Shown piece by piece: positions 2,474 to 24,297 of a DNA stretch of 64,000 bases (within the stretch, counting starts at the first letter, position 1; the number at the start of each line of letters is the position of its first letter). The position numbers and the translations under genes are program-made. Below the pieces are notes generated by a model, which was given only the letters and a program-made list of their open reading frames with translations, searched no databases and was not told where the DNA came from. Origin of the DNA: Rhizobium sullae. Its GTDB lineage: Bacteria; Pseudomonadota; Alphaproteobacteria; Rhizobiales; Rhizobiaceae. The DNA is taken from positions 868,001 to 932,000 of the forward strand of contig NZ_CP104143.1 in the NCBI RefSeq assembly GCF_025200715.1, in the 5' to 3' direction.

Positions 2474-3172
2474 CTAGCTGCGGCGGCTGATGACCGGCCC
2501 TTTGGGGGAGCCGAATTCAGCAAGCACCGTTTCGCCGGCAATTGCCGTCTGGCCGAGCGATACACGCGCCGCCGCGCCGGCAGGAAGGAATACGTCGAGT
2601 CTGGAGCCGAAGCGGATAAGGCCGAAACGCTCGCCGGCATCCAGCGGCTCGTTGTTATTGGCCCAGCACAGAATACGGCGGGCGACGAGGCCAGCGATCT
2701 GCACGACGCCGACCTGGCCGTGGACGGTCTCGATCACCAGGCCATTGCGCTCGTTGTCCTCGCTCGCCTTGTCGAGCTCGGCATTCACGAAGCTGCCCGA
2801 CCGGTAGTTGATGCTGACGACGCGGCCGCGCACCGGCGAGCGGTTCACATGGCAGTTGAAGACGTTCATGAAGACGGAGATGCGCAGCATCGGCTCGCTG
2901 CCGAGATCGAGCTCGGCGGGTGGGGTGACCATCTGGATCGAGGAAACCTTGCCGTCGGCCGGCGAGATCACCAGATCGTCATCCTGCGGCGTCATGCGCT
3001 CGGGATCGCGGAAGAAGTAAGCGCACCAGAGCGTCAGGACGAGACCGACCCAGAAGAGTGGCTCGAATATCCAGCCAAGGATCAGCGAGGCTACGAAGAA
3101 CGCGGCGACGAATACATAGCCTTCCTTGTGCACCGGAACGATGGTGTTTCGAACGGTATTGAGCAAGCTCAT
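2474..3172 (-). CDS. psd: Phosphatidylserine decarboxylase proenzyme
   Basis: Decarboxylates phosphatidylserine to phosphatidylethanolamine, using a pyruvoyl cofactor made by self-cleavage. The product of about 232 residues is the short form seen in alphaproteobacteria. It has an N-terminal hydrophobic hairpin ([17 protein letters not shown] and a following helix) and the conserved stretches FFRDPER, SPADGKV and [12 protein letters not shown]. The processing site is the Gly-Ser in RFGSRLD, with Ser at about residue 190 becoming the pyruvoyl group. The start at MSLLNTVRN (3172) has GAGGAG upstream; a longer reading to 3256 adds an unlikely Arg-rich leader. First gene of the psd-pssA pair. Confidence 0.95.
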
Positions 3173-3312
3173 CGACGCTGGTCTCCTCGCGCTTTTTCGT
3201 TCCCGCTGGTTATAGAAAAAGTCCTGCGGGAGCAATGCCGTGCCGCTTCCGCTCAACCTTATGGCATGGTTCTAAACAGCAAAACGGCAAAGCGGTCGTT
3301 TGGTTCGAACGC

Positions 3313-23470: not shown

Positions 23471-23639
23471 GAATCCACATCAAAAAATGGCCGGAAGATG
23501 AGTCTCCAGCCAGTTTAGTGGCCAACTTGGTCAATAGGAAGTCCGGCGCCGCACTGCAGCTTGGTTCTTCGGAGTGAATGAAGTTTCGTCGGTCGTCGCA
23601 AAACTTTGCGCTGCACAATCCTTCAGAAGAAAGCCAGCA

Positions 23640-23979
23640 TCAGGCAACGCTGCGAAGGTCGAAATCCGCGTGGATGACGTCGTAGGGCACATGAATACGT
23701 CCCTCATTCGATGAGCGCCGCCGTGTCCTCATGCACCCGCTTGACGTCGCGGGAAAGGGCGGAGGCTAGACTACGATACGTCGAGGGGCCGAGTCTCTGC
23801 AGTGTCTCGATCAAGGTCCAGCGCTTGGGCGTCAGGATCATAAAGAGCTGCTCGGGGGAGGAAAAGCTGAAGACATGGTCCTGTGCTTCACCCGTCTTCC
23901 AGGCTGCAGCGAATCCCTCAAGGGCTTGCCGGAGCGCAGTTTCGTCGTTTCGCTGAATTCGGATCGTGGCGGTTGTCAT
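23640..23979 (-). pseudogene. COG4190/HVO_A0114-type HTH protein (putative antitoxin), C-terminus broken by a frameshift or small deletion
   Basis: The intact frame encodes 91 residues from 23979 with FSFSSPEQLFMILTPKRW and a winged-helix segment SLASALSRDVKRVHEDTAALIE, then a TGA at 23704. In a different frame directly downstream the sequence reads GRIHVPYDVIHADFDLRSVA and stops at 23640; this is the tail expected for the family. So a short out-of-frame deletion seems to have removed the wing between the recognition helix and the tail. Its ATG overlaps the stop of the upstream DUF6516-like gene (ATGA). Family members pair with that gene as presumed antitoxins. It could still make a truncated DNA-binding protein. 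Confidence 0.65.
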
Positions 23980-24248
23980 CGGCGGGGTTGCCTCCTCATC
24001 ACTACGTCTGTGAGGAAATCATCGATAAGCTTGTCGATCGTCGAGAATTCATACGTCTCCTCATGGCCTCGGATATGCTTGTGGTCGCCGTATCCAACGA
24101 CGCGCTTTCCAGGATAACCGCAGAACAGGCTATATTTGTAATTATGCTGGCTGCCCAGCAATGGCCGCGGAACGTTCCAGATCACCACTTCCACGATGGC
24201 CCCGTCCGACAGCACGCTTTTCGAACGGTAAAGCAGTTGCGCCCTCAT
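23976..24248 (-). CDS. DUF6516/TumE-like protein, putative toxin of a toxin-antitoxin pair
   Basis: 90 residues from ATG 24248. Conserved family stretches visible are LSDGAIVEVVIWNVP, NYKYSLFCG, GKRVVGYGD and HKHIRGHEETYEF. Such proteins are regularly encoded just upstream of a COG4190-type HTH gene and are annotated as toxin components; mechanism unknown to me. There is no Shine-Dalgarno sequence before the ATG. Instead the start codon lies inside a perfect 14-bp inverted repeat. The pair sits between dnaB and alr, genes usually adjacent, which suggests insertion by horizontal transfer. The broken partner suggests the toxin is weak, silent or controlled otherwise. Confidence 0.7.
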   Translation of the reverse strand: MRAQLLYRSKSVLSDGAIVEVVIWNVPRPLLGSQHNYKYSLFCGYPGKRVVGYGDHKHIRGHEETYEFSTIDKLIDDFLTDVVMRRQPRR

Positions 24249-24274
24249 GTTGGCGATGATGCCAACATGAGGGC
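24241..24274. repeat. Perfect inverted repeat over the start codon of the TumE-like gene
   Basis: GCCCTCATGTTGGC at 24241-24254 and its exact complement GCCAACATGAGGGC at 24261-24274, with the 6-base spacer GATGAT. It begins about 24 bases past the dnaB stop (minus strand) and covers the ATG of the putative toxin. It may be an operator for the HTH partner, an RNA hairpin hiding the start codon, or the dnaB terminator. No T-run follows it on the minus strand, which weakens the last option. Confidence 0.7.
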
Positions 24275-24297
24275 AGCTTGTGAAATCGCACTGGAAC

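What the first reader, a model, noticed from the sequence alone, without database searches (positions are those of the whole stretch)
23640..24248. TumE/DUF6516-like gene with a frameshifted HTH partner set between dnaB and alr
The second gene matches a winged-helix antitoxin type but stops early, while its expected tail (GRIHVPYDVIHADFDLRSVA) continues in another frame to 23640, implying a small out-of-frame deletion. dnaB and alr are normally adjacent, so the pair looks inserted. A toxin-like gene with an apparently disabled partner is unusual: is the toxin dead, controlled by the truncated protein, or by RNA?
Basis: partly seen in the sequence, partly recalled or inferred. Interest (0 to 1): 0.7.

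Follow-up and report, generated by a model that had tools for sequence, protein, structure and literature searches.

The report
A toxin pair decaying, toxin first
Two genomes of the root-nodule bacterium Rhizobium sullae carry a broken toxin-antidote gene pair: in both, the toxin lacks six residues of its family's most conserved stretch and is predicted to be harmless, and the antidote gene is damaged differently in each, so the poison was likely lost before the antidote.

Summary
Between dnaB and alr lie tumE (PF20126) and a winged-helix partner (PF25212) that stops at residue 91 because 23 bp are missing; its tail continues in another frame. Both R. sullae genomes lack the same six residues (18 bp, in frame) of a motif that 76 of 80 named relatives keep. 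The second genome has a different lesion in the partner. Likely order: toxin disarmed first, then antitoxin broken twice. The pair is not a recent insertion: it fills the same slot in 11 of 148 genus genomes and in three further named relatives. Five sister species have an empty slot, most simply by loss. A wider pattern emerged: in 44 of 61 non-redundant TumE loci a sigma70-like promoter has its -10 ending 5-9 (mode 7) bases before the toxin's start codon, between inverted-repeat half-sites that differ between loci yet stay complementary. This predicts a leaderless toxin mRNA and an antitoxin that clamps -10 and start codon; I found no description of it in my searches. Toxicity, transcription start and DNA binding are untested.

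The parts
23976..24248 (-). tumE-like toxin gene, 90 aa; six residues shorter than relatives inside the conserved motif; predicted inactive
   Evidence: Pfam PF20126 37.7 bits vs cut-off 23.4; deletion by alignment; intact relative scores 56.0 bits
24089..24090 (-). junction of the 18-bp in-frame deletion in tumE, shared with the second R. sullae genome (G138)
   Evidence: alignments
23704..23979 (-). winged-HTH partner (TumA-like antitoxin candidate), truncated to 91 aa
   Evidence: PF25212 71.9 bits, profile positions 1-61 of 84; intact relatives 120 or 130 aa
23703..23711 (-). junction zone of the 23-bp deletion in the partner gene (window genome only)
23640..23702 (-). out-of-frame remainder of the partner's C-terminal tail (20 codons and stop)
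23976..23979 (-). 4-base overlap of tumE stop and partner start (ATGA), as in relatives
   Evidence: 12 of 13 loci; the exception is the frame-broken N. tomejilense toxin; for R. terrae
24241..24274 (.). perfect inverted repeat, 14-bp arms (24241-24254, 24261-24274), 6-bp loop, covering the tumE start codon; candidate antitoxin operator
   Evidence: single occurrence of the core pattern in the own genome; conserved in relatives
24256..24284 (-). sigma70-like promoter: -35 at 24284-24279 (one substitution from the TTGACA of 12 of 13 loci), 17-bp spacer, -10 at 24261-24256 inside the palindrome, ending 7 bases before the ATG
23488..23512 (-). terminator-like hairpin between the pair and alr (a consensus match; 2 found, 1.2 expected)

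Best explanation
This is a TumE-type toxin-antitoxin operon that is likely dying in R. sullae, and the order of damage is likely toxin first: both genomes share an in-frame deletion that removes six residues of the toxin's conserved motif, while the antitoxin gene carries a different lesion in each genome. In relatives the pair is intact, with the toxin gene in front, a 4-base overlap, and a promoter whose -10 and start codon lie inside an inverted repeat; the inferred working cycle is that the TumE-TumA complex binds this repeat and shuts off a leaderless toxin mRNA, while TumA binds and neutralises TumE. In R. sullae the inferred sequence is: motif deletion disarms TumE; TumA is no longer needed for survival; TumA breaks separately (23-bp deletion in the window genome, 1-bp deletion in G138) and the window genome's -35 also changes; the expected end point is the empty slot now seen in sister species. 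Shown: the deletions, their sharing, conservation of the motif, synteny, promoter and repeat positions. Inferred: loss of toxicity, order of events, operator function, leaderless start.
For: Six residues missing in both R. sullae toxins; the motif is kept in 76 of 80 named loci, the other four being R. sullae itself, two frame-broken genes and one single-residue variant; D54, E56, G58 and K59, all inside the missing block, are invariant in a 61-sequence alignment from which I left out R. sullae, the two frame-broken genes and the variant; the block lies at the end of strand 4 and the turn into strand 5 in a confident model of the intact G093 protein (pLDDT 94.7). Different partner lesions: 91 aa in the window genome, 46 aa in G138, versus 120-130 aa in the 12 other dnaB-alr copies. 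In 19.9 kb aligned between the two R. sullae genomes all 3 indel events fall in the 827-bp pair interval, and tumE differs by 2 amino-acid changes and no silent change, while 13 other ORFs show 49 silent and 28 amino-acid changes. The window genome alone of 13 loci has a changed -35 hexamer. Synonymous divergence from G093 is of the same order for tumE (0.46), partner (0.88), dnaB (0.43) and alr (0.82), as for vertical inheritance. rpoB places five empty-slot species beside R. sullae, with occupied G093 just outside.
Against: No activity was measured, so a shortened TumE could still be toxic or have another role; it still scores above Pfam's cut-off. tumE dN/dS between R. sullae and G093 (0.21) is only mildly above other pairs (0.03-0.17), so long relaxation is not shown. 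G138 is a draft of about 320 contigs and its 1-bp lesion could be an assembly error. Only two R. sullae genomes were available, so the shared deletion's frequency in the species is unknown. The order toxin-then-antitoxin rests on shared versus private lesions; an earlier shared silent defect of the antitoxin is not excluded. Indels are also tolerated in noncoding DNA, and the clustering was seen after the fact. The TumE/partner tree supports R. sullae with G093 only at 0.88 and leaves G116 unresolved (0.49).
Confidence: 0.8

Rival explanations
1. The shortened TumE is still a toxin and is held in check by the truncated partner, by RNA, or by the second, intact TumE-TumA pair of the same genome.
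For: The protein scores above the TumE cut-off; the GDHxH end of the motif is kept; the genome holds a second pair with full-length toxin and 116-aa partner; a very stable hairpin would form over the start codon in any read-through RNA (-31.3 kcal/mol, z -7.6).
Against: Invariant charged residues are gone. G138 keeps only 46 in-frame residues of the partner, so the truncated form is not a shared solution. The second toxin is only 42% identical and its partner is distant (26% to the G093 partner). The predicted transcript starts at the ATG and would not contain the hairpin.
Confidence: 0.08
2. The disarmed toxin is kept for a new job, for example as a decoy that binds TumA of incoming elements or as a co-repressor at the palindrome.
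For: The toxin frame is open in both genomes although the partner is broken, and the palindrome is perfect in both.
Against: Two amino-acid changes and no silent one separate the two toxin copies, both apparently on the window genome's side, and the window's -35 is substituted: this looks like drift. 18-bp in-frame loss leaves an open frame without any selection.
Confidence: 0.07
3. Sequencing or assembly errors mimic the lesions.
For: G138 is a fragmented draft; its lesion is one base. A similar one-base toxin lesion in N. tomejilense comes from a contig titled with about 6.5x coverage.
Against: The 18-bp deletion is present in two independent assemblies and the 23-bp deletion lies in a 4-contig genome rated 99.98% complete.
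Confidence: 0.05
4. The pair was acquired anew by the R. sullae lineage at this slot rather than inherited and lost by its sisters.
For: Five closest species have a clean 107-108-bp gap; the slot also takes other genes elsewhere in the genus.
Against: All copies at this slot are each other's nearest relatives, the gene tree puts R. sullae with G093 as rpoB does, and synonymous divergence matches the flanks. Transfer by homologous flanks from a G093-like donor is not excluded.
Confidence: 0.2

Closest known systems
TumE-TumA toxin-antitoxin superfamily (PF20126; PMC10584680, passages seen)
   Same: Toxin family membership by profile; two-gene operon with a likely DNA-binding partner; the tested gammaproteobacterial members blocked E. 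coli growth and protein synthesis and were neutralised by their partners (that paper's passages).
   Different: Toxin gene first, whereas the paper describes DUF6516 as mostly downstream of the partner; partner is of the HVO_A0114 family, a name not found in that paper; in R. sullae both genes are damaged.
HVO_A0114 winged-HTH family (PF25212)
   Same: Intact partner of G093 matches the whole profile, 95.2 bits.
   Different: The window copy ends at profile position 61 of 84, losing what follows the last helix.
Toxin-first operons with the reverse gene order, such as mqsRA (abstract of PMC6918082 seen in the listing)
   Same: Toxin gene precedes the antitoxin gene.
   Different: The abstract reports promoters of its own for mqsA; here I looked only at the promoter before the toxin.
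Degenerating chromosomal TA systems of E. coli (PMC7167474, passages)
   Same: Decay by deletion and nonsense mutation at a conserved location.
   Different: Here a shared toxin lesion and private antitoxin lesions suggest the order of decay.
Leaderless mRNAs in Sinorhizobium meliloti (PMC3616915, passages)
   Same: 171 mapped start sites fall on the first base of an AUG in a related genus, so such starts are ordinary for these bacteria.
   Different: No start site has been mapped here; leaderless start of tumE is a prediction from promoter position.

Membership tests
TumE toxin (PF20126) | profile score over the curated cut-off | tested here: met
   37.7 bits vs 23.4
TumE toxin (PF20126) | conserved DxExGKGDHxH-type motif | tested here: not met
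   six residues missing in both R. sullae genomes; 76 of 80 named loci keep the motif. Hence filed as a degenerate, predicted inactive relative, not as a working TumE
TumE toxin (PF20126) | growth inhibition through translation | not testable with these tools
   needs expression in a laboratory strain
TumE-TumA operon | adjacent partner gene on the same strand | tested here: met
   4-base overlap; 80 of 80 named TumE loci have a profile match to this partner downstream on the same strand
TumE-TumA operon | intact antitoxin | tested here: not met
   91 aa in the window genome and 46 aa in G138 versus 120-130 aa in 12 other dnaB-alr copies
HVO_A0114 winged HTH (PF25212) | profile over cut-off and full length | tested here: inconclusive
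   71.9 bits, over the cut-off, but positions 1-61 of 84 only
Autoregulated type II TA operon | operator over the promoter bound by the antitoxin | tested here: inconclusive
   inverted repeat spans -10 and start codon and is conserved; binding not testable here
Known solved fold | match of the intact TumE model to a solved structure | tested here: inconclusive

The most novel reading that the evidence does not exclude
TumE/HVO_A0114 systems across many phyla share one hitherto undescribed control design: the toxin is made from a leaderless mRNA, and its -10 element and start codon are clamped between two antitoxin half-sites that co-evolve with each antitoxin; R. sullae shows the natural order of disarmament of such a module, toxin motif first, antitoxin afterwards and repeatedly, on the way to the empty slot of its sister species.
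Probability: 0.6. Interest if true: 0.62.

Novelty: new variant of a known kind. Interest (0 to 1): 0.5.

Why it matters
An addiction pair should not be able to lose its antitoxin while the toxin works. R. sullae likely shows the permitted route caught halfway: between species with the working pair (G093) and species with an empty slot (G041, G052, G021, G102, G024). It makes the decay order testable with natural alleles. The promoter pattern, seen across TumE loci from alpha-, beta- and gammaproteobacteria, Nitrospira and others, would make the start codon itself part of the antitoxin's switch, and gives a concrete site for testing how TumA-like proteins regulate a translation-blocking toxin.

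Tried and rejected
Recent insertion: rejected by synteny in relatives. Truncated partner as a shared short antitoxin: rejected, G138 has another lesion. Hairpin RNA as the controller of a live toxin: the hairpin is stable, but the predicted transcript would begin at its far end. A programmed frameshift joining the two partner frames: not pursued, because the relatives show a deletion of 23 bp rather than a conserved shift site. PADLOC and NCBIfam gave no family for the dnaB-alr pair. Solved structures by sequence: nothing for TumE (best E 0.7); weak ArsR-type matches for the partner (E 0.00038).

Results against the reading: tumE dN/dS is only mildly raised; some left-arm bases of the palindrome are not matched by the right arm in the G129-G106 group, and G133 has a one-sided right-arm change; 16 of 61 loci lack a promoter-like site at 9 of 12, and 1 of the 45 that have one lies outside 5-9 bases; a dozen or so of the 61 show little complementarity between half-sites. 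The permutation does not keep relatedness of the loci, so its significance is inflated to an unknown degree. The 'spacer' column printed is 2 too large through a bookkeeping slip in my script; the spacers are 17 bases (16 in G138), as one search gives for the loci shared with it and as the printed sequences show.

Full report
WHAT IS THERE. On the minus strand, in the order dnaB - tumE - partner - alr, lie a 90-codon tumE-like gene (23976-24248) and a 91-codon winged-HTH gene (23704-23979) that overlap by four bases. Pfam gives TumE at 37.7 bits (cut-off 23.4) and HVO_A0114 (PF25212) at 71.9 bits (cut-off 27.6), the latter only to profile position 61 of 84. The window lies in a 7.6-Mb, 4-contig genome.

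THE REAL LESIONS. Aligned with relatives, both R. sullae toxins lack 18 bp in frame, six residues of the motif ending in GDHxH. Of 80 named TumE loci 76 keep the motif; the four others are R. sullae, two frame-broken genes (L104, L146) and one single-residue variant (L124). In a 61-sequence alignment, from which I left out R. sullae and those three, D54, E56, G58 and K59 inside the missing block are invariant. In the model of the intact G093 protein (pLDDT 94.7, pTM 0.86) the block is the end of strand 4 and the turn into strand 5. The partner is broken differently in the two genomes: 23 bp missing near codon 91 in the window genome, one base missing near codon 26 in G138, which leaves 46 residues. 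Twelve other copies at this slot have 120 (11) or 130 (1) residues. The model of the intact partner (pLDDT 80.1, pTM 0.69) has its last helix at 79-92, so the window copy loses what follows, the presumed wing.

SIGNS OF RELEASE FROM SELECTION. In 19.9 kb shared by the two R. sullae genomes there are 101 mismatches and 3 indel events; all 3 indels lie in the 827 bp between dnaB and alr. tumE differs by two amino-acid changes and no silent one; 13 other mechanically called ORFs of at least 200 codons show 49 silent and 28 amino-acid changes. By comparison with relatives both tumE changes are on the window genome's side. The window genome's -35 hexamer has one substitution where 12 of 13 loci read TTGACA. 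These are few events, seen after the fact; dN/dS on the longer branch to G093 is only mildly raised.

HISTORY OF THE SLOT. TumE matches occur in 33 of 148 genus genomes; in 11 of them a copy lies between dnaB and alr. Three named relatives, R. terrae, Neorhizobium vignae and N. tomejilense, have it there too; 12 of the 80 named loci sit at this slot, 9 of them matching genomes already counted. The five species closest to R. sullae by rpoB have 107-108 bp between the genes and no pair. The pair's own tree joins R. sullae with G093 (0.88), and synonymous divergence to G093 is similar for tumE 0.46, partner 0.88, dnaB 0.43 and alr 0.82 (rpoB 0.28). Inheritance with one loss in the sister clade is the simplest reading; homologous transfer from a G093-like donor is not excluded. 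Elsewhere the slot holds other genes: AraC regulator plus AzlC in a genome inspected (L079), an amidohydrolase after the pair in G093.

CONTROL REGION. A perfect inverted repeat (14-bp arms, 6-bp loop) covers the tumE start codon and its core occurs once in the genome. A promoter-like site has its -10 inside the repeat, ending seven bases before the ATG. In N. vignae, N. tomejilense and R. terrae one position of the repeat is changed on both arms in a matching way; other left-arm changes are unmatched. I then looked at 99 TumE loci (80 named, 19 others); 94 were usable and 61 remained at 80% TumE identity. Of these 45 have a promoter-like site at 9 of 12 or better, 44 with the -10 ending 5-9 bases before the start codon and 34 at exactly 7; shuffles gave 0.82 on average and at most 4 in 100 runs. 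Half-sites on the two sides of the -10 are complementary for 5.57 bases on average against 4.09 (sd 0.13) when right halves are exchanged between loci, never reached in 500 exchanges; the 31 loci without CAAC before the start codon behave the same (4.97 against 3.53). Relatedness is not removed by that control. Prediction: the toxin mRNA is leaderless and TumA sits on the -10 and start codon. Leaderless starts are common in a related genus (171 mapped in S. meliloti; PMC3616915, passages).

MECHANISM. Inferred cycle in relatives: TumE blocks translation (shown for other family members, PMC10584680 passages); TumA neutralises it and, with it, represses the operon at the palindrome. Inferred in R. 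sullae: the toxin's motif deletion made TumA dispensable; TumA then broke twice. Nothing needs to hold the toxin in check. The genome keeps a second, apparently intact TumE-partner pair (96 and 116 residues) elsewhere, 42% identical in the toxin.

NOVELTY. TumE-TumA is known. Full-text searches for TumE or DUF6516 with toxin words gave one paper on the family, of which I saw passages; another listed paper (PMC12225799) names TumE once and I did not open it. The family paper's text has no 'operator' or 'leaderless'. Searches joining toxin-antitoxin with leaderless and operator or inverted-repeat terms listed no TumE work. So the toxin-first decay and the shared promoter design appear undescribed within that library, which lacks most subscription papers.

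VERDICT. Real, correctly located, partly misread: a degenerate TA operon with likely toxin-first decay, ordinary as a single pseudogene case but informative as a stage between working and empty slots, and it pointed to a family-wide promoter-operator design.

Noticed in passing
61 non-redundant TumE loci, 60 bases upstream of the start codon: Shared arrangement TTGACA - 16-18 - TATNAT - 7 - start codon with inverted half-sites (often TGTTGG / CCAAC) around the -10: predicted leaderless toxin mRNA and operator over the start codon.
   Followed up: partly
L104 (Neorhizobium tomejilense), 3001-3240: tumE at dnaB-alr is frame-broken while the 120-aa partner is intact: the reverse half of a toxin-first decay, or an error in a contig titled with about 6.5x coverage.
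   Followed up: partly
dnaB-alr interval of 147 genus genomes: Variable slot: <=250 bp in 65, 0.6-1.6 kb in 15, >1.6 kb in 67. AraC regulator plus AzlC seen in L079; not checked in the rest.
   Followed up: partly
L067 (G093), between the pair and alr: An amidohydrolase-family gene on the opposite strand lies between the TumE pair and alr.
   Followed up: no
L162:2814-3451 (G000:C1:516.8 kb): A second TumE-HVO_A0114 pair with full motif and 116-aa partner in the same genome; G138 has a 42%-identical counterpart match too.
   Followed up: partly
L076 (G123), 1063-bp dnaB-alr interval: No TumE; a 148-aa ORF resembling a membrane protein by eye lies there.
   Followed up: no
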